Assembly (NCBI GenBank): GCA_016787295.1
Contig: JAEUUX010000105.1
Location: 1-43,875 of the forward strand
Direction of reading: 5' to 3'
From: Chitinophagales bacterium
GTDB lineage: Bacteria; Bacteroidota; Bacteroidia; Chitinophagales; UBA2359
Length of the DNA stretch: 43,875 bases
Of this stretch, positions 4,465-29,866 are shown piece after piece (positions within the stretch are counted from its first letter, which is position 1; every line of letters starts with the position of its first letter). The position numbers were made by a program, and so were the translations under genes. The notes below the pieces were generated by a model. The model had not been told where the DNA came from, did not search any database, and saw only the letters and a program-made list of their open reading frames with translations.

Positions 4465-5406
4465 TCACTCCCAACAAGCTAAATCCGCTGCTACTTGTTG
4501 CGAAAACGAGGCGGCTCCTTGCGGGTTGAGGTGCAAAATATCCAAAAACAAACTATCTTTCCCTGCAAAAAGGCGACTATAATCCCACTGTTGCACTTCG
4601 GGATAGTGTTGCAACAAAGAATCGACAGGCGAAACCAAAGGCGGGTTGGGGAAAATAGAGTCTACAATATGTTGCGTACAATCGGGCATAGGGTAGGAGA
4701 GGAGTATAATGGGCAAATGCTGCCTGCGACACAAATCAATAATTCTTTGCAAATACAACAAACCTGTATGACTATAAAGCGTGGCAGGTTTTTTTTGTAA
4801 GAGGGTATTCCAAACAAAGTTGCGGGCTATGGCATCATTTTGAGCCGCGCTATGTTCGTTGAGTTGGGCGGCATTATCCACTCCAAATTGAAAAACGTTT
4901 TCCATGCCCCGCAAAAAAATGTCACGACTCTCTATATACGGAAAAAAACGGTACACATAATAAGTCTTTTGAGCAGCAGCAAAAGGAATATGGTGGGTCT
5001 CGCTCCAATCGGCATAGTCAATCAGTTGGTTATAATAATAGTAGTTTCGGACATAATCGATATTACTTTGGGCATAAATAGAGAAATCGTGCGACAATAG
5101 CAGCACTTCGGGTTGCGGTGCCTTGGGCGTATCAAACAGTCTCTGGAGTTTGTAATACCGCATAGCAACACTTTCGCCGCCTGCTGCCCACTTTTGAGCC
5201 GCAGGAATTTGGTCGAGCAATACTGCTTTATTGGCGCGCGAATCTCCCATAAACAAATAACGATAGCCTTGCGGAGGATAAAGCACTTGCTGTTCGGCTT
5301 TCCACAAATCGCCTTTGCCAAATTTTTGCGTAAAAATGGCATACAAAGCCCCATGCAAGAACAAACAAACGACAAAGAACAACAGCATTTTGCGTACCAA
5401 CACCAT
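4465..5406 (-). CDS. membrane-anchored SGNH/GDSL-hydrolase-like protein
   Basis: The 313-residue protein starts with one membrane helix (about 4-24), so the body is likely periplasmic. Block I of the SGNH fold is seen as YLFMGDSRANKAV around residues 50-62 (GDS with the nucleophile Ser), and a block V-like LFLDILHLNPQG near residues 292-303 supplies the Asp and His. Such proteins often act as acyl- or acetyl-transfer or hydrolysis enzymes on envelope sugars, which would fit the convergent membrane protein next door. The substrate cannot be told. A TACCTTAG box upstream of the start is a near match to the -7 consensus. Confidence 0.6.
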   Translation of the reverse strand: MVLVRKMLLFFVVCLFLHGALYAIFTQKFGKGDLWKAEQQVLYPPQGYRYLFMGDSRANKAVLLDQIPAAQKWAAGGESVAMRYYKLQRLFDTPKAPQPEVLLLSHDFSIYAQSNIDYVRNYYYYNQLIDYADWSETHHIPFAAAQKTYYVYRFFPYIESRDIFLRGMENVFQFGVDNAAQLNEHSAAQNDAIARNFVWNTLLQKKPATLYSHTGLLYLQRIIDLCRRQHLPIILLSYPMPDCTQHIVDSIFPNPPLVSPVDSLLQHYPEVQQWDYSRLFAGKDSLFLDILHLNPQGAASFSQQVAADLACWE

Positions 5407-5657
5407 AATTATTCGAATTTGGCGCTAAGGTAAGCCATATTACTGGGTTTTGCAAAAAACGATAGCGAATCGGCAATTGTTAATTGGCTTTTGGACAGAA
5501 ATGCGCTAAGAAGCATCGGTGTGGTGGAGCTTTCTCCCTAAAGTAGTGTTTAAATTTTATTTTATGGAGAAAATGAAGACGAAAAAGCACACTAATTCCT
5601 ACCAAACACACCAAGCAATAAGAAAAAAAACTATCTTTGCGCCGAAAATAATTGACT

Positions 5658-7355
5658 ATGACACCACCTTCCACACCTATACGGATTTTTATTGCCTACT
5701 CCAAACACGACGAAGCCTATTTAAAGGCTTTACTGAAACATTTGAAACCTTCCACAAAGAATAATACGATAGAAGTATTCCACGACGGCGAAATAGAGGC
5801 AGGCAAAGAATGGAACAAGACCATTAAAGACAACCTACACCAAAGCGATATTATATTGCTCTTGGTGAGCGCCAATTTTGTGGCTACTGATTACTGTTAT
5901 GATGAAGAAATGATAGCAGCCATTGCCCTGCACGAGCAAGGAAAAGCACAAGTTATCCCTATCATTGTCACGCCTTTTGATTTCGAGGATATGCCTTTTG
6001 CCAAACTCAACTTTCTACCTTCGAAAGCCAAACCGATTAGTTTGTATAAAGATGAAGGGCAGCACCAAGCCTATACAGAAATAGTAATTGCCCTAAAAAT
6101 CAATTACAAAGAAGTATATAAACGCCGTGAGGTTTTGCAAAAAGCAAAGCAGGAGCAAGAAGCGCAGGAAAAGGCGGAACAGGAGCGACAGGAAAAAGAA
6201 GAAAAGGCTGCAAAACGCAAACAGTATGACGATTGTTGCAAAAACGCTGACAACTTGTTTAAGCAAGAGAGGTGGGGGCAAGCCAAAGAACAATACAAGG
6301 CTGCTCAAGGAATGTATGAAGCGGGATATACTCCCAAAGCAGATGCTTTACAAATTAAGATAGAGCGATGTGATGATGAAATAGCAGCCCGCGATTATAT
6401 AGACCATGCCAAAACCTGCCTACAAGACCGAAAGTATGAAAAGGCAGCCCTTTCGCTACAAAATGCCTTGAAAGAAAAACCAAGTTTAAAAGAACGTCCC
6501 GATATACAGACTTTGCAACAACAAATCCAAGACGGTATTGTTGCAGAACGCGAACGCAAAGCCCATGAAGAAGCGGAACGCAAAGCTCGCGAGGAGGCGG
6601 AACGCAAAGCCCATGAAGAAGCGGAACGCAAAGCCCATGAAGAAGCCAAAATACGCCAACTTCCTGTCCCCATACAACAACTCCTACAAGACATGGTCTT
6701 GGTAGAAGGCGGTAGCTTTATGATGGGTAGTGATGATGGACGTGATAGTGAAAAACCCGTACATCGTGTAAGTTTGGATAGTTTTCATATAGCCAAATAT
6801 CCCATGACTCAAGCGCAATGGCAGGTAATTATGGGCAGTAATCCGAGCGGGTTTAAAGGAGATAATTTACCTGTCGAGCAGGTAAGTTGGCAGGACGTAC
6901 AAGACTGTGTAGCAAAACTAAACGCGATGCTCCAAAAAGCGGAATTGCCCGCAGGTTTCTGCCTGCCGACCGAAGCCCAATGGGAATATGCTGCGCGCGG
7001 TGGCAATAAAAGCAAAGATTATAAATATGCAGGCAGTGATGATATAGACAAAGTGGCATGGTATGATGGTAATAGCAGCAACCAAACACAGCCCGTAGGT
7101 CAAAAAGAAGCTAACGAACTCGGTTTGTATGATATGACTGGCAATGTGTGGGAATGGTGCGCAGATTGGTATGGTGGTGATTATTATAAAAACAGTTCTA
7201 CTAATAACCCTATTGGTCCATCTACTGGCACAGGCCGCGCGTTGCGCGGCGGCAGTTGGGGCAGCAGTGCGGGGAGCTGTCGTGTGGTTATTCGCGGCAG
7301 CGGCGCACCTACTATCCGCTACAACATCTTAGGCTTTCGTCTCGTAGTGAGGTAG
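5658..7355 (+). CDS. TIR domain / coiled-coil / FGE-sulfatase protein with DGR-type variable C-terminus
   Basis: A 565-residue three-part protein. Residues 5-150 form a TIR domain starting IRIFIAYSKHDEAYLK; the helix after SANFVATDYCYDEEM carries Glu83/Glu84, where bacterial TIR NADases keep their catalytic Glu. Residues 152-335 are coiled coil and TPR-like, ending in four ERKAHEEA-type octads. Residues 345-565 are an FGE-sulfatase (SUMF1-like C-type lectin) domain with MVLVEGGSFMMGS, LPTEAQWEYAARGG, DMTGNVWEWCADW and RALRGGSW. After Trp534, 14 codons (535-537, 540, 544-545, 547-549, 552-553, 555-557) are all NNY and reachable from AAY by changing A only, embedded in fixed A, CR, R, AP, R, LGFR residues. 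That is the pattern of DGR variable regions in this fold. No reverse transcriptase, template repeat or avd gene is in the window. The ATG at 5658 is chosen over a TTG two codons earlier; a TATCTTTG box lies at 5632-5639. Confidence 0.85.
   Translation: MTPPSTPIRIFIAYSKHDEAYLKALLKHLKPSTKNNTIEVFHDGEIEAGKEWNKTIKDNLHQSDIILLLVSANFVATDYCYDEEMIAAIALHEQGKAQVIPIIVTPFDFEDMPFAKLNFLPSKAKPISLYKDEGQHQAYTEIVIALKINYKEVYKRREVLQKAKQEQEAQEKAEQERQEKEEKAAKRKQYDDCCKNADNLFKQERWGQAKEQYKAAQGMYEAGYTPKADALQIKIERCDDEIAARDYIDHAKTCLQDRKYEKAALSLQNALKEKPSLKERPDIQTLQQQIQDGIVAERERKAHEEAERKAREEAERKAHEEAERKAHEEAKIRQLPVPIQQLLQDMVLVEGGSFMMGSDDGRDSEKPVHRVSLDSFHIAKYPMTQAQWQVIMGSNPSGFKGDNLPVEQVSWQDVQDCVAKLNAMLQKAELPAGFCLPTEAQWEYAARGGNKSKDYKYAGSDDIDKVAWYDGNSSNQTQPVGQKEANELGLYDMTGNVWEWCADWYGGDYYKNSSTNNPIGPSTGTGRALRGGSWGSSAGSCRVVIRGSGAPTIRYNILGFRLVVR
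6548..6647 (+). repeat. in-gene 24-bp tandem repeat
   Basis: About four 24-bp units encode ERKAHEEA-like octads (one unit has Arg in place of His) between the TPR-like part and the FGE domain. They would extend a charged helix and could vary in number by slippage without shifting the frame. Confidence 0.8.
7257..7352 (+). other. candidate DGR variable region (VR)
   Basis: This is the 3' end of the TIR-FGE gene. From Trp534 to the last codon, variable-type codons GGC, AGC, AGT, GTT, ATT, ACT, ATC, TAC and AAC alternate with constant codons, and every variable codon ends in C or T. The constant tail GGCTTTCGT (Gly-Phe-Arg) would be the mutagenic-homology end. The pattern is directly visible; that a retroelement made it is inference, since FGE domains without DGRs share the RGGSW...R...GFR frame. 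Confidence 0.55.
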
Positions 7356-7796
7356 TTCTGTTCATTTGGCATTTCCCATTGAGCAAAAAAACAAGTGTTG
7401 TGGTATAGCGGTTGCGTAGCCTGCCTAAGCGGAGCAGGCAGCAAGCTACCACTGTACTACAACACTTTACAAAGAATGGGCACAGGTGGAATCAACCCTT
7501 CGGAGGTTCAAAACCTCCGAAGGGTTTTCCAATGATGTCAGCTTATTGTAAAACCTACTTTACGGAGAAATATCGGTACAAGTACGGTAAAGTAATATCA
7601 TTTCTGCAAAACCCATTCCAAAAATAACCCTGAAAGGGTGATACGATATGTTTTGTTGGACTAAAAACCCGCGATAACACAGAAAATTTGCACTATCCCT
7701 TCAGAAGTTTCGAGCTTCTGAAGGGATATTTTTGGTGTTTCATAAAAAAGCGTATCTTTGCACTGTTTTCCCAAACCCACAAAAACAAGGACTAAA
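7356..7796. other. intergenic region with palindromes and the hicB promoter
   Basis: No gene is supported. It holds an imperfect stem at about 7399-7452 (outer GTGGTA/TACCAC, inner GCCTGC/GCAGGC), a perfect 13-bp stem at 7497-7525 (CCCTTCGGAGGTT / AACCTCCGAAGGG), a dispersed AACCCTGAAAGGGTGA motif near 7627, and an 11-bp stem at about 7696-7724 (CCCTTCAGAAG / CTTCTGAAGGG). The first could end the TIR-FGE transcript or correspond to the hairpin that often lies 3' of DGR variable regions; neither is shown. Confidence 0.6.
7731..7760 (+). promoter_or_regulatory. Bacteroidota-type promoter of hicBA
   Basis: TTTG at 7731-7734 and TATCTTTG at 7753-7760 are separated by 18 bases, matching the -33 TTTG / -7 TAnnTTTG consensus of the Bacteroidota primary sigma factor. 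The hicB ATG follows 36 bases downstream. Confidence 0.7.
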
Positions 7797-8006
7797 ATGA
7801 ATACCGAACTTATATTTTTAGTGGAAGAATCTCCCGAAGGCGGCTATACGGCGCAGGCACTTGGACAAGCCATCTTTACAGAAGCCGATACCTATACCGA
7901 CCTAAAAACCCAAATATCCGACGCAGTACGTTGTCATTTTGAAACTAATGAAATGCCTACTTTGGTGCGCCTGCATTTTGTAAAAGACGAAGTATTAGTG
8001 ATATGA
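7797..8006 (+). CDS. HicB-family antitoxin
   Basis: The 69-residue protein (MNTELIFLVEESPEGGYTAQ) matches the small HicB fold, which binds and neutralises the HicA mRNA interferase. The motif ESPEGGYTAQALGQAIFTEAD followed by a helix of the DLKTQISDAV type is characteristic; no separate C-terminal DNA-binding domain is present. Its TGA overlaps the ATG of hicA (ATGA at 8003-8006), the usual coupled arrangement, here with antitoxin first. Because the toxin gene is frameshifted, this antitoxin may be orphaned. Confidence 0.8.
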   Translation: MNTELIFLVEESPEGGYTAQALGQAIFTEADTYTDLKTQISDAVRCHFETNEMPTLVRLHFVKDEVLVI

Positions 8007-8244
8007 AAATACCGCGTAACCTAAGCGCCAATGAGCTTATCAAGTCCTTGGAAAAAGTGGGCTATTTGCCCACTCGTCAGACTGGTAGCATATAAGGCTT
8101 ACCACACAGCAAAATGGTCAACACCACATAACCATACCGCAACACAGTCCGCTGCGAATAGGAACATTATCTGCTATTCTCAGTGAAGTTGCACACCATT
8201 TGCAGACGGATAAACAAAAATTGCTTGAGTTGTTGTTTAGCTAA
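8003..8244 (+). pseudogene. frameshifted HicA toxin gene
   Basis: The first 29 codons read MKIPRNLSANELIKSLEKVG and then YLPTRQTGS, after which the frame meets TAA at 8093. Restoring one base at about 8089 gives HIRLTTQQNGQHHITIPQHS and so on to LLELLFS and a TAA at 8242-8244, a normal-length HicA of about 80 residues. The missing base falls in the codon of the catalytic His of the GSH motif (GGT AGC -AT). The rest of the gene is uncorrupted, so the mutation is recent, or a sequencing error. Confidence 0.8.
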
Positions 8245-8344
8245 AATACCAACTTATCGGTACAGCGGTTTTTTATTCCGCAATAAAAAAATAAGACCCA
8301 GAACATCAGGAAGTTCCAAAATCTCCGAAGTACTATAAACAAAG

Positions 8345-8383
8345 AAAAAACCGCCACAGCCCAAAGCCGTAGCGGTTTTTTTT
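8345..8383 (-). terminator. terminator of the FN3-protein gene
   Basis: On the minus strand an 11-bp stem (ACCGCTACGGC with GCTGTGGCGGT, two wobbles) is followed by a T-run. It lies just after the stop at 8417; the flanking A- and T-runs make it potentially bidirectional. Confidence 0.75.
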
Positions 8384-8416
8384 GTGTGCATGGTGGCGCG
8401 TCGCCATAATAACAGC

Positions 8417-9022
8417 CTATCGCACCATCATCGTGGCAGGGTCGCTCCAATTGCTGACACCATTGGTGTTGACGGCTCGCACTTGCACCCAAATCACTGT
8501 GCCGCGGGCAATACCGCTCAAAGTTGCGTGGGTATTAAATGCCAAACTGCTGGGTTGCCATACTTCGTCGCCCTCTTTTCGCCAACGAATTTCGTAGGTA
8601 GTAGCTTTAGCATCTTTTTTGTACTGCACCAATGCTTCGCCGTTCAATTTGCCGTCCGATACGCGAACATTTTCGGGCGTATTGGGTGTTGTGCCTTGGG
8701 TAGGTTTTTTCGCCAATTCAAAACCTGTTGCTAAAATGCTAGACTCATTGCTGTCGGCATGGTCTTCGATGTAGCTTGCCCACAGCAAAAGAACTTGCAC
8801 CAATTCTTTGCGAGCTTCGTTTTTGGCTGCCACTGCCAATCTGCCGCCATCGGCTGCTGCGGCTAATTTTGCCTTATAGTTAGCAAGTTTTCCATTAAAT
8901 GTCTCGACAGAAGGATAAATATTGCCAAATAAAGACGAGGCAGGGATACACGATTCTATTTGCTCCCCTGTTGCCAATAGTTCTGCATCGGTTTGTTTAC
9001 TAAAAAACTTCCGAACTTTCAT
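8417..9022 (-). CDS. fibronectin type III domain protein
   Basis: The 201-residue protein has no signal peptide. Residues 1-105 form a helical, Ala- and Lys-rich domain (KQTDAELLATGEQIES; EARKELVQVLLLWASYIEDH) of unknown function. Residues 112-201 form an FN3 domain: TPENVRVSDGKLNGEALVQY, YEIRWRKEGDEVWQP, GTVIWVQVRAVNTNGVSNWS and a short end. This combination is seen in Bacteroidota as stand-alone proteins near mobile DNA, but I cannot assign a role. It is followed by a strong terminator and flanked upstream by a repeat-rich region. Confidence 0.7.
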   Translation of the reverse strand: MKVRKFFSKQTDAELLATGEQIESCIPASSLFGNIYPSVETFNGKLANYKAKLAAAADGGRLAVAAKNEARKELVQVLLLWASYIEDHADSNESSILATGFELAKKPTQGTTPNTPENVRVSDGKLNGEALVQYKKDAKATTYEIRWRKEGDEVWQPSSLAFNTHATLSGIARGTVIWVQVRAVNTNGVSNWSDPATMMVR

Positions 9023-9359
9023 GGTAAATACGGATTTAAAAAATAATTCAAAAAATTAGTTCAGGTACGGTAGTAGGGTAGGTAGTACTATTCATTCCAT
9101 CAAATCAACAACATCAATGCGATGTTGTGCGCGAAAAAAAATGTGTCGTGCATTCAGGGCAAGTTTTCAATTATCAATTGTTATTGGTCAATTGTTAATT
9201 GTTGTGTCAGGTAGTATTTCCGTTATAAACGCAAGAGCATTTGCTCAATTATCAAATATTAGTTGTTAATTGGTGTTTAGTCATCTTTTGAAGGTTTTCT
9301 TTTTGTTTGATTTTATTATTGGCATAATGCCACAGCTTTCTTTTTTTAACGTTATTATT

Positions 9360-9763
9360 GCATGGAGCAATTATTAATTATCAGTTGTCAATGGTTAATG
9401 CTTTTGTTTTGGGCAATAAAACGCCATGGTTTTTGTATTATTGTGCGACTTTGCTTTTTTTGAAAAATTTTATTTGTATGACGCAACAAAAGGATAATAG
9501 GTTGCATGGAGCAATTATTAATTATCAATTGTCAATGGTTAATGCTTTTGTTTTGGGCAATAAAACGCCATGGTTTTTGTATTATTGTACGACTTTGCTT
9601 TTTTTGAAAAATTTTATTTGTATGACGCAACAAAAGGATAATAGGGTTGCATGGAGCAATTATTAATTATCAATTGTCAATGGTTAATGCTTTCCTTTGA
9701 GCAATAAAACGCCATGATTTTTGTACTGTTGTGCGACTTTGCTTTTTTTGTGAAAATTTTACG
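9360..9763. repeat. 144/145-bp tandem repeat, about 2.8 copies
   Basis: Units begin GCATGGAGCAATTATTAATT at 9360, 9504 and 9649, the last being partial and diverged. Each includes the TTAATTATCAATTGTCAATG core related to the 23-26 kb repeat family and a GCGACTTTGCTTTTTTTG block. The first two copies differ at only a few bases, so the duplication is recent. Translations across it are open only because the period is a multiple of three. Confidence 0.85.
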
Positions 9764-9832
9764 GTTCTTCCATGATTTTGGCAATAGTCAACAAAAAAAC
9801 GGGTTTATTTTCTTTCTAAACTCCCAAAACGC

Positions 9833-9975
9833 ATTGAAACGCCGCATTTCTCATGAGAAATGAAGCAAAGAACAAGAGAAACGCCGCATTTCTCATGAGA
9901 AATAGAGCAAAGAACAAGAGAAACGCCGCATTTCTCATGAGAAATGAAGCAAAGAACAAGAGAAATGAAGCACAA
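9833..9975. repeat. 42-bp palindrome-bearing tandem repeat
   Basis: Units start at about 9841, 9883 and 9925, with a partial fourth at 9967. Each holds the perfect 18-bp palindrome CATTTCTCATGAGAAATG followed by an AGCAAAGAACAAGAG segment. Units are almost identical. The last ones run in frame into the transposase-like remnant. Confidence 0.85.
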
Positions 9976-22936: not shown

Positions 22937-23690
22937 GCCATTCGTTTCGATTAATAGCATAAATGCCCGAAAAACGGGTTTTTAATTGTTAATTATCAAT
23001 TGTTAATTGTTAATGGAATGCAGTTTTGTCACCTTTTCAGGCTTAATTGTTTGGTTGTATTTGTCAATGACAAAAAAATGTTTCACGGTTTTATGGCATT
23101 GTTTCATTTTTTTTCAAAAAATACAAACAACGCCACCAAATACCATTTTTTAATTGTTAATTATCAATTGTTAATTGTTAATGAAATGCAGTTTTGTCAC
23201 CCTTTTAGGGTTAATTGTTTTGTTGCATTTGTCAATGACAAAAACAATAACACATAAAAAAATAACAACCCCGAAGGGGTGACAAGTTTATAGCAAAACG
23301 GAAACAAAAGATTTCACAAAAACCCCGAAGGGGTGATATGTTATTTGTTATGCGATGTTGACGACAAAAGTAAGTGCAATTTTTTCCAAAAATAACCATT
23401 AACAATTCAAAAAATGGTTGTATTTTGTTTGTGTGTGTGGGAATGTTGCCAATAATGTCACCCTTTCAGGGTTTTATAAAATGTTGTTTTTTGTTTTTGG
23501 CTACAAACTTGTCACCCTTTCAGGGTTAATTGTTTTGTTGCATTTGTCAATGACAAAAAAATGTTTCACGGTTTTATGGCATTGGTTCATTTTTTTTCAA
23601 AAAACACAAACACCACCACAAAACGGTTATAAATAATTCCCAAAATATCACACATATTTTACAAATCATAACACATCGCTAAAAAAAGCC

Positions 23691-23930
23691 ATGTCAACGA
23701 CAGAAAAAGGTGTGTCAACGACAAAAATAGATGTGTCAACAACAGAAAATTGTTTGCAAAAGACAAAAAAAGCCATGTCAACGACAGAAATTGGCGTGTC
23801 AACAACAGAAAAAGGTGTGTCAATGACAGAAAAAACCATGTCAACGACAGAAAAAGGTATGTCAACGACAAAAATTGGCGTGTCAACAACAAAAAGTTGT
23901 TTGCAAAAGACAAAAAAAGCGGGTTTTTAA
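23691..23930 (+). repeat. 21-bp minisatellite, in-frame heptad copy 1
   Basis: Eleven 21-bp units read MSTTEKG VSTTKID VSTTENC LQKTKKA and so on, ending Gly-Phe-TAA, 79 residues. The TAA lies in the start of the following R1 repeat. Translation has not been shown, and the TAnnTTTG promoter motif is missing. Confidence 0.6.
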
Positions 23931-24614
23931 TTGTTAATTATCAATTGTTAATTGTTAATGGAATGCAGTTTTGTCACCCTTTCAGGGTTAATTGTTTTGT
24001 TGTGTTTATTAATGACAAAAATCACAACACATAAAAAAATAACAACCCTGAAAGGGTGACAAGTTTATAGCAAAACGGAAACAAAAGATTTCATAAAAAC
24101 CCCGAAGGGGTGACACATTACTTGTTGCGTTATGTCTATGGCAAAAATAAACGTTTTTTAATTGTTAATTATCAATTGTTAATTGTTAATGGAATGCAGT
24201 TTTGTCACCCTTTTAGGGTTAATTGTTTTGTTGTATTTGTCAATGACAAAAACCACAACACATAAAAAAATAACAACCCTGAAAGGGTGACAAGTTTATA
24301 GCAAAACGGAAACAAAAGATTTTGCAAAAACCCCGAAGGGGTGACACATTGCTTGTTGCGTTATGTCTATGGCAAAAATAAACGTTTTTTAATTGTTAAT
24401 TATCAATTGTTAATTGTTAATGGAATGCAGTTTTGTCACCCTTTTAGGGTTAATCGTTTTGTTGCATTTGTCAATGACAAAAAAATGTTTCACGGTTTTA
24501 TGGCATTGGTTCATTTTTTTTCAAAAAACACAAACACCACCACAAAACGGCTATAAATAATTCCAAAAAAGTCACACATATTTTACAAATCATAACACAT
24601 CGCTAAAAAAAGCC

Positions 24615-24833
24615 ATGTCAACGACAAAAAAAGGTGTGTCAACGACAGAAAATTGTTTGCAAAAGACAAAAAAAGCCATGTCAACGACAGAAATTGGCGT
24701 GTCAACAACAGAAAAAGGTGTGTCAATGACAGAAAAAGGTGTGTCAATGACAAAAAAAGCCATGTCAGCGACAAAAATTGGCGTGTCAACAACAGAAAAT
24801 TGTTTGCAAAAGACAAAAAAAGCGGGTTTTTAA
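24615..24833 (+). repeat. 21-bp minisatellite, in-frame heptad copy 2
   Basis: Ten heptads of the same (M/V)STT(E/K)xx type, ending LQKTKKAGF and stop; 72 residues. It starts after the same ATCGCTAAAAAAAGCC block as copy 1. Confidence 0.6.
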
Positions 24834-25223
24834 TTGTTAATTATCAATTGTTAATTGTTAATGGAATGCAACGTTGTCACCCTTTTAGGGTTAATTGTTT
24901 TGTTGTGTTTATTAATGACAAAAAAACGTTTCACGGTTTTATGGCATTGGTTCATTTTTTTTCAAAAAACATAAACAACATGACCAAACACCATTTTTTA
25001 ATTGTTAATTATCAATTGTTAATTGTTAATGGAATGCAGTTTTTTTACCCTTTTAGGCTTAATTGTTTTGTTGTATTTGTCAATGACAAAAAAATGTTTC
25101 ACGGTTTTATGGCATTGGTTCATTTTTTTTCAAAAAACACAAACACCACCACAAAACGGCTATAAATAATCCCCAAAAGGTTACACATATTTTACAAATC
25201 ATAACACATCGCTAAAAAAAGCT

Positions 25224-25463
25224 ATGTCAACGACAAAAAAAGGTGTGTCAACGACAGAAAATTGTTTGCAAAAGACAAAAAAAGGTGTGTCAACGATAGA
25301 AAAAGGTATGTCAGCGACAAAAATTGGCGTGTCAACAACAGAAAAAGGTGTGTCAATGACAGAAAAAGCCATGTCAACGACAGAAAAAGGTGTGTCAACG
25401 ACAAAAATAGATGTGTCAACAACAGAAAATTGTTTGCAAAAGACCAAAAAAGCGGGTTTTTAA
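25224..25463 (+). repeat. 21-bp minisatellite, in-frame heptad copy 3
   Basis: Eleven heptads (79 residues) with the same start context and the same Gly-Phe-stop junction to R1. The unit order differs from copy 1, implying independent gain and loss of units. Confidence 0.6.
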
Positions 25464-26000
25464 TTGTTAATTATCAATTGTTAATTGTTAATGGAATGCA
25501 ACGTTGTCACCCTTTTAGGGTTAATTGTTTTGTTGTATTTGTCAATGACAAAAACAATAACATAGAAAAAAATAACAACCCTGAAAGGGTGACAAGTTTA
25601 TAGCAAAACGGAAACAAAAGATTTCACAAAAACCCCGAAGGGGTGATATATTATTTGTTATGCGATGTTGACGACAAAAGTAAGTGCAATTTTTTCCAAA
25701 AATAACCATTAACAATTCAAAAAATGGTTGTATTTTGTTTGTGTGTGTGGGAATGTTGCCAATAATGTCACCTTTTCAGGGTTTTATAAAATGTTGTTTT
25801 TTGTTTTTGGCTACAAACTTGTCACCCTTTCAGGGTTAATTATTTTGTTGCATTTGTCAATGACAAAAAAATGTTTCACGGTTTTATGGCATTGTTTCAT
25901 TTTTTTTCAAAAAACACAAACACCACCACCAAACGGCTATAAATAATTCCCAAAATGTCACACATATTTTACAAATCATAACACATCGCTAAAAAAAGCT

Positions 26001-26030
26001 ATGTCAACGACAAAAAAAGCGGGTTTTTAA
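26001..26030 (+). repeat. 21-bp minisatellite, collapsed copy 4
   Basis: A single heptad, MSTTKKA, followed by GF and TAA in the same context. It shows that the array can shrink to one unit and still keep frame and stop. Confidence 0.6.
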
Positions 26031-26649
26031 TTGTTAATTATCAATTGTTAATTGTTAATGGAATGAAGTTTTGTCACCTTTTCAGGGTTAATTGTTTTGT
26101 TGCATTTGTCAATGACAAAAATTACAACCACCATTGTACAATATTGTTTCATTTTTTTTCAAAAAACATAAACAACGCCACCAAATACCATTTTTTAATT
26201 GTTAATTATCAATTGTTAATTGTTAATGGAATGCAACGTTGTCACCCTTTCAGGCTTAATTGTTTTGTTGCATTTGTCAATGACAAAAACCACAACCACC
26301 ATTGTACAATATTGTTTCATTTTTTTTCAAAAAACACAAACAACGCCACCAAACACCATTTTTTAATTGTTAATTATCAATTGTTAATTGTTAATGGAAT
26401 GCAACGTTGTCACCCTTTTAGGGTTAATTGTTTTGTTGCATTTGTCAATGACAAAAATCACAACCACTATTGTACAATATTGTTTCATTTTTTTTCAAAA
26501 AACATAAACAACATGACCAAACACCCATTAACAATTGATAATTAACAATTAACCATTAACAATTAACCATTAACAATTAACAACCGTTTTTATGACAAGC
26601 TCTTTTGTGAAAAAAATGACAAAAAAATTACAAAAAAAATGAAAAAAAA

Positions 26650-26681
26650 TTTGGAAAATAAAATAAATGGCTGTACCTTTG
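26650..26681 (+). promoter_or_regulatory. strong Bacteroidota-type promoter
   Basis: TTTG at 26650-26653 and TACCTTTG at 26674-26681 with a 20-base spacer match the phylum consensus almost exactly. The next ATG is 55 bases downstream at 26737. It would drive the two-repeat protein and, in the absence of a clear terminator, possibly the hairpin array. Confidence 0.8.
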
Positions 26682-28988: not shown

Positions 28989-29018
28989 TTTCCTGCTCGT
29001 AGGGATACGCGTAGGAAA
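28989..29018 (+). repeat. array hairpin 6
   Basis: TTTCCTGC pairs with GTAGGAAA... on the return strand (G-T wobble), then a T-C mismatch, CGTA/TACG and loop GGGA. Downstream block at about 29094-29204. Confidence 0.8.
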
Positions 29019-29281
29019 TTTTTAAAGAATACCGTCAAAATAAATAGGCATAAGACAAAAAAATAGACCAACGTTCATGTATTAACAAAGACTATGCTTC
29101 AAAATTTGGGCAATTTGCCATTTCTTGTATAGTTTATTGCTGTAAAACGGTTTTGTGTGGTGGAAAATGAAGTTTATTTGTCCGCAAAAAGTATGATTAA
29201 GAACCAAATGGGATAAACAATAGTATTTTTGATACACTAAAAAGTTCTTTTTGATAAAAGAGTTTAAAGTTAAAAAATATA

Positions 29282-29311
29282 TTTCCTGCTCGTAGGGATA
29301 CGCGTAGGAAA
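29282..29311 (+). repeat. array hairpin 7
   Basis: Identical to hairpin 6 in the stem-loop; the two units are the most similar pair, including the TTTTTAAAGAATACCGTCAA stretch after the stem. Downstream block at about 29387-29497. Confidence 0.8.
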
Positions 29312-29571
29312 TTTTTAAAGAATACCGTCAAAATAAATAGGCAAAAAACAAAAAAATAGACCAACGTTCATGTTTTAACAAAGACTATGCTTCAAAATTT
29401 GGGCAGTTTGCCATTTCTTGTATAGTTTATTGCTGTAAAACGGTTTTGTGTGTTGGGAAATGAAGTTTATTTGCCCGCAAAAAGTATGATTAAGAACATA
29501 CAAAGTATAGATTTTAGTTTGTAATGATTTTTTTTAAAAAAAATAATGTAAAAAAGTTTTTAGTTAAGCAC

Positions 29572-29601
29572 TTCCCTGTTCGTAGGGATACGCACAGGGA
29601 A
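29572..29601 (+). repeat. array hairpin 8
   Basis: TTCCCTGT / ACAGGGAA: relative to hairpin 9 a C-G pair is replaced by T-A, a compensatory change. CGTA/TACG and GGGA loop kept. Downstream block at about 29679-29790. Confidence 0.8.
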
Positions 29602-29866
29602 TATTTTTATAAAACATCATCAAAAAGAATAAACAAAAAGTAAAAGAAATACAGCCAATTGTACCTTTTTATAAAGACCATGCTTCAAAATTTGGGCAGT
29701 TTGCCATTTTTTGTATAGTTTATTGCTGCAAAAAGGTTTTGTATGCTGGAAAATGAAGTTTATTTGTCCGCAAAAAGTATGATTAAGAACACAAACGCAG
29801 GGACAATTTTTTTTTTGAGGTATTTAAAAAAAAAAGTTGAGAAATCAAGTTGAATATTGTAAGAAA

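What the first reader, a model, noticed from the sequence alone, without database searches (positions are those of the whole stretch)
7257..7352. TIR-FGE protein ends in a DGR-like variable region
Fourteen codons in the last 31 are NNY codons for G, S, V, I, T, Y or N, exactly those reached from AAC/AAT by adenine-only changes, while interspersed A, CR, R, AP, R and LGFR codons are constant-type. FGE/C-lectin folds are the established display scaffold of DGR targets, and TIR-bearing targets are known from cyanobacteria and others. A hypervariable sensor joined to a TIR effector would be a tunable defence or signalling receptor.
Basis: partly seen in the sequence, partly recalled or inferred. 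Interest (0 to 1): 0.8.

Follow-up and report, generated by a model that had tools for sequence, protein, structure and literature searches.

The report
TIR sensor with orphan hypervariable tip
A bacterial immune-type protein ends in a binding tip built by a mutation machine (a diversity-generating retroelement), but in this assembly the machine is missing, leaving a small set of seemingly frozen, already diversified receptors.

Summary
The last 31 codons contain exactly 14 NNY codons of the stated kinds. Twelve of them fall on columns that are AAC/AAT in the template repeats (TRs) of DGRs in genomes of the same family. Across the five variable-repeat (VR) tails of this genome, 59 of 60 codons at those columns are NNY; the FGE-domain background is 410 of 760.
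The best-matching solved structure, by sequence and by fold, is TvpA, a DGR variable protein. The gene is a TIR–coiled coil–FGE protein with a DGR-type VR.
The DGR itself was not found in this 98.3%-complete assembly: no reverse transcriptase, no TR, no TR-side flank copy. A control search in a relative found that flank copy. The genome's VRs differ at 25–38% of non-mutable positions, against 1–8% at two loci that have a TR. So the VRs look frozen; unassembled machinery is not excluded.
TIR-bearing DGR targets are published, so this is a new member of a known kind.
Side result: in 15 of 19 TR/VR pairs, DNA just after the VR matches the reverse complement of DNA just after its TR, and the match is DGR-specific. 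The window has only the VR half. This suggests that the DGR RNA's flank pairs with the target site; I did not find it in the passages read.

The parts
5658..7355 (+). TIR - coiled coil/helical repeat - FGE-sulfatase protein, 565 aa (a TTG in frame at 5652 would add 2 residues)
   Evidence: TIR_2 5.2e-14, FGE 5.2e-52; model mean pLDDT 90.3
5685..6050 (+). TIR domain (residues 10-131), closest defence profile ThsB (Thoeris); Glu83 aligns with the E of the WCWDE stretch of Cat1
   Evidence: (8.9e-34); that this Glu is the NADase catalytic residue is recalled
6687..7346 (+). FGE-sulfatase / C-type-lectin-like domain
   Evidence: best solved match TvpA 2y3c
7236..7355 (+). VR-type tail; variable columns are codons at +1,2,3,6,11,13,14,15,19,21,22,23 after the Trp at 7257
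7356..7385 (+). VR-side 3' flank element (TTCTGTTCA...CATTGAGC, plus one base), the half that in TR-bearing DGRs is complementary to the TR flank
7393..7467 (+). long branched inverted repeat (AAGTGTTGTGGTATAG ... TACTACAACACTT) downstream of the VR
   Evidence: the flank holding it was found only after three VRs in the genome. DNA-fold z-score -1.8, not strong on its own

Best explanation
The gene encodes a TIR effector joined through a coiled coil to an FGE/C-lectin binding domain whose tip is a DGR variable repeat. Adenine mutagenesis from an AAC/AAT-rich template wrote 12 codons of that tip in an ancestor, or in cells whose DGR is not in this assembly. Here the reverse transcriptase and template are not found, so this gene, two more TIR-FGE genes and one kinase-FGE gene are most likely a frozen repertoire of already diversified sensors (a fifth copy is broken). 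Likely action: ligand binding at the variable face drives oligomerisation, the TIR consumes NAD or makes a signal, and the cell stops growing or dies. Shown: domain make-up, VR pattern, homology to DGR targets with a linked TR, absence of RT and TR in the assembly. Inferred: ligand binding, TIR activity, defence role, loss rather than non-assembly.
For: TIR and FGE domains. TRs of five same-family DGRs are AAY-rich in register with the window's variable codons. NNY 59/60 against background 410/760. TvpA is the top solved match by sequence (7.3e-36) and fold. A caspase-TIR-FGE target with a linked TR in L107 shows 21/29 A-site and 0/79 non-A differences. Three copies keep a DGR-type 3' flank found nowhere else in the genome. 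No RT: RVT_1 0 matches, DGR-RT profile 0 at E<=10 while 5 of 20 family genomes have a full-length one. No TR: the tail profile finds only FGE genes. The flank probe finds no inverted copy, but does find one, beside the TR, in control genome G001. Own VR pairs differ at 25-38% of non-mutable positions, against 4-8% (L045) and 1-5% (L096) at TR-bearing loci.
Against: The assembly has 296 contigs and repeats break assemblies, so RT and TR could be missing from it. No population data tested ongoing variation. The 3' flank is 90-95% identical over its first 60 bases between the three TIR copies although VR and gene bodies are only 57-68% and 75-77% identical, which simple long-term decay does not explain. 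The Avd search had a silent control and says nothing. FGE-type tails in general are variable, and 61 of 177 tails examined are 12/12 NNY, so the NNY pattern is a family trait and not proof for one gene.
Confidence: 0.8

Rival explanations
1. An active DGR diversifies these genes in trans, but its RT/TR locus was not assembled or sits on a lost plasmid or phage.
For: The assembly is fragmented; three VRs keep a nearly identical target-site flank; DGRs are common in the family, 5 of 20 with full-length RT; trans action is published for Thiohalocapsa PB-PSB1 (PMC10907252, section 8 read).
Against: Completeness 98.34%; no trace of RT, TR or inverted flank even at E<=10 or 3 mismatches; VRs not homogenised at non-A positions, so at most one could be a recent product of a single TR; no phage match to the VR plus flank.
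Confidence: 0.17
2. No DGR was ever involved for this gene: an ordinary FGE-fold binding domain under diversifying selection that happens to use NNY codons.
For: FGE tails are variable in general; no RT in the genome.
Against: 12 of 12 template columns NNY, 59/60 over five tails; ordinary FGE genes of the same genome score 5/12 and 7/12 (L005, L007); exact column register with TRs, and TvpA as best relative; DGR-type 3' flank retained.
Confidence: 0.03

Closest known systems
DGR variable proteins with TIR, kinase, NACHT or peptidase effectors and a C-terminal FGE/CLec VR (Thiohalocapsa PB-PSB1 and relatives, PMC10907252; passages and section 8 read)
   Same: Effector + linker + C-terminal FGE/C-lectin fold with variable codons; TIR and Pkinase both appear among PB-PSB1 target domains (figure legend)
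   Different: Here no RT or TR was found in the genome; no STAND NTPase domain in the window protein
Treponema denticola variable protein 1 (TvpA, PDB 2y3c)
   Same: Top solved match by sequence and by fold; VR at the C-terminus (recalled)
   Different: TvpA carries no TIR and belongs to a DGR in its own genome (both recalled)
Thoeris ThsB TIR (PADLOC PDLC00420)
   Same: TIR domain similarity 8.9e-34
   Different: Fused to an FGE sensor; no ThsA gene was looked for

Membership tests
DGR target (variable protein) | C-lectin/FGE fold ending in a VR | tested here: met
DGR target (variable protein) | Variable codons are adenine-derived (AAY to NNY) in register with TRs | tested here: met
   12/12 window, 59/60 genome, against family TRs
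DGR target (variable protein) | A cognate TR identical at non-A positions in the genome | tested here: not met
   the nearest TR among the loci held still differs at 24/83 non-A positions
DGR target (variable protein) | DGR reverse transcriptase in the genome | tested here: not met
DGR target (variable protein) | Accessory gene avd | tested here: inconclusive
   0 matches, but nothing rang in the 14 control genomes either
DGR target (variable protein) | Inverted repeat/target-site flank just after the VR | tested here: met
   not the short 4-nt-loop hairpin of phage DGRs described in PMC3240598
DGR target (variable protein) | Ongoing variation within a population | not testable with these tools
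   no reads, no second genome of the genus among those searched
TIR effector | TIR fold with the catalytic-type Glu | tested here: met
   (alignment only; activity not tested)
Formylglycine-generating enzyme | Two active-site Cys in the tail | tested here: inconclusive
   One Cys codon (7278-7280) is present in the tail; the place of the other lies among the variable codons (by eye, human sequence recalled)

The most novel reading that the evidence does not exclude
The flank after the VR is an address. In DGRs of this kind the RNA just 3' of the TR is complementary to the sense strand just 3' of the VR. Read as one strand, the RNA flank followed by the self-primed cDNA would be the antisense strand of the target site across the VR end, so the RNA primer would serve as the downstream homology arm. 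In the window genome three TIR sensors keep one such shared address after the machine itself was lost, or hidden from assembly.
Probability: 0.4. Interest if true: 0.75.

Novelty: new member of a known kind. Interest (0 to 1): 0.5.

Why it matters
It shows how DGR-built immune-type receptors can outlive their machine as a fixed, inherited repertoire, and three copies keep their target flank nearly unchanged. The TR/VR flank complementarity gives a probe for finding missing templates and a testable idea for how a DGR finds its target, which a 2026 paper still calls incompletely understood (PMC12875486, passages read).

Tried and rejected
Rejected: a cis DGR beside the gene (the stretch 5400-9000 was read and holds no RT or TR that I could see; searches agree). 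Rejected: the idea that the 3' flank is a dispersed repeat; the own-genome search has 3 significant hits, all after VRs, and 17 hits at E>1. Led nowhere: phage DNA search with VR plus flank, no match; plasmid protein search, only FGE relatives below 60% identity; viral contigs, 50 loci of at most 52% identity; one genome-contig scan, no close relative of the whole protein, best segment identity 56% in the FGE part; Rfam on the window, 0 matches. A test of whether the VRs are younger than the gene bodies was weak: third-base Y/R differences between own paralogues are 16-39%, so absence of NNR at 16 codons is only mild evidence. Window flank against individual TR flanks: p<0.02 for 2 of 7 only, so the flank element rests on its ends, its position and its three copies, not on similarity to any one DGR. 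The AG|C versus AG|T junction rule placed the junction wrongly in L088 (that locus scored well) and found none in 3 of 13.

Literature: searches; passages read in PMC10907252, PMC3240598, PMC12875486, PMC4372165 and PMC8867640, and section 8 of PMC10907252. None of those passages mentioned complementarity of TR and VR flanks; that does not show that it is unpublished.

Full report
What is there. The window lies in an unnamed 5.42-Mb, 296-contig, 98.34%-complete genome, probably Bacteroidota (inference from hits). The gene at 5658-7355 has a TIR domain, a long helical middle and a C-terminal FGE-sulfatase domain.

Why it is a DGR-type variable repeat. No other genome of the genus was among the 99 searched; other genera of the family were. 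In five family genomes, contigs with a DGR-type reverse transcriptase (GLPIGN-L-T/S/C-SQ and Y-V/M/I-DD motifs) also carry a TR and one to four FGE-tailed targets. Their TRs are AAC/AAT-rich in the same columns as the window's variable codons. TR against VR comparisons in the loci held give 12-23 differences at A and 0-2 at 73-88 non-A positions, with one exception, a second target in L088 with 12/84. In the window genome five tails of this type exist: three TIR-FGE genes (L001 the window, L002, L004), one kinase-FGE gene (L003) and one broken copy on C238. At the 12 columns that are AAY in at least four of five TRs, 59 of 60 codons are NNY; the exception is a GAA in L004. Two ordinary FGE genes of the genome score 5/12 and 7/12 (L005, L007). 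The closest solved structure by sequence and by fold is TvpA. A TIR-bearing target with its own linked TR exists elsewhere: L107, a caspase-TIR-FGE protein of a Thermoguttaceae MAG.

Why it looks orphan. No RVT_1 match, no match to a profile of five DGR RTs at E<=10 although 5 of 20 family genomes match it over full length, no TR found by a profile of the five tails at E<=10: 7 matches, all in FGE genes already listed. The avd search is uninformative because its control was silent. A flank probe finds three significant copies, each right after a VR, and none in the TR orientation. The same kind of probe in TR-bearing G001 finds five VR-type copies (one at a contig edge) and one short inverted copy beside the TR. 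Own VR pairs differ at 25-38% of non-mutable positions; VR pairs in G001 and in L096 differ at 4-8% and 1-5%. So no two of these VRs were written recently from one template. VR-type tails without a detected RT also occur in other family genomes: of the 29 tails checked, those with at least 11 of 12 (or 11 of 11) NNY come, outside the five RT-bearing genomes, from G000, G003, G004, G007, G008, G015, G016 and G018, that is 8 of the 15 genomes without a full-length DGR RT; several of these are incomplete MAGs.

The unexplained flank. The first 60 bases after the Phe-Arg codons are 90-95% identical between the three TIR-FGE genes (120 bases: 78-96%), while the VRs are 57-68% and the 330 bases upstream 75-77% identical. 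Targets in G001 show the same order: flank 93-100%, upstream 69-83%. The kinase-FGE gene lacks the flank. I have no proven explanation; a constrained target site, or spread of the 3' end by recombination, are the candidates.

A wider pattern seen on the way. Comparing flanks of TRs and VRs, 15 of 19 testable pairs show that the DNA after the VR matches the reverse complement of the DNA after the TR (p<0.01 against shuffles), and 1 of 19 matches in direct orientation (one further pair lacked flank; several pairs share a TR). Across ten TRs with a definable junction, matched pairs score 28.5 on average and swapped pairs 13.3; the matched pair ranks first in its row in 8 of 10, second in L103, and fails in L088 where the junction was misplaced (3 of 13 TRs had no junction by the rule). 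TGAGC occurs within bases 9-80 of 0 of 11 TR flanks and 24 of 138 other flanks; GCTCA in 8 of 11 and 5 of 138. Published work describes an inverted repeat after the VR that aids homing (PMC3240598, PMC12875486, passages) and cDNA primed from the spacer RNA and attached to it (PMC12875486). Putting these together, the RNA flank plus attached cDNA would read as the antisense strand of the target across the VR end. That is inference; in the window only the VR half is present (7356-7385).

How it would work. The TIR resembles ThsB of Thoeris and carries a Glu aligned with the Cat1 stretch WCWDE; NADase activity is known for TIR families (recalled) and was not tested here. The FGE-fold tip would bind a ligand, the helical middle would transmit clustering, and the TIR would act. 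The defence role is inference from the families, as in PMC10907252.

Verdict. Observation confirmed; interpretation right about the kind of sequence, not supported for a working DGR in this genome. A new member of a known kind, with an interesting orphan state and a side result on flanks that deserves its own test.

Noticed in passing
L043, L044, L045, L046, L088, L096, L134, L196, L248 (flanks just after TR and VR): The 3' flank of the VR matches the reverse complement of the 3' flank of its TR, specific to each DGR. Could be an RNA-to-target address or primer-derived homology arm.
   Followed up: partly
L103, L212 (TR flanks): A short stretch, TCGGATGGAA, is shared in the same inverted sense right at the VR end (L103; L212 by eye).
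   Followed up: partly
C238:10913-11557 of the window genome (L009-L011): A broken FGE copy with several stops whose tail still reads NNNTPNIRYNN, near a template-like state.
   Followed up: partly
G006:C18 around 30162 (L196): A second TR/VR pair next to a 42-residue RT match, apart from the full DGR on C131.
   Followed up: no
window 7746-8244: A small HicB-like ORF (no Pfam match) followed by a HicA-like sequence lying in two different frames; the names rest on recalled resemblance.
   Followed up: partly
window 22982-26664: A dense tract of nested tandem repeats (units of 7, 21, 42, 84, 168 and 231 bases), and another at 28992-29795 (unit 293).
   Followed up: no
window 9358-9972: Tandem arrays of 144-base and 42-base units.
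   Followed up: no
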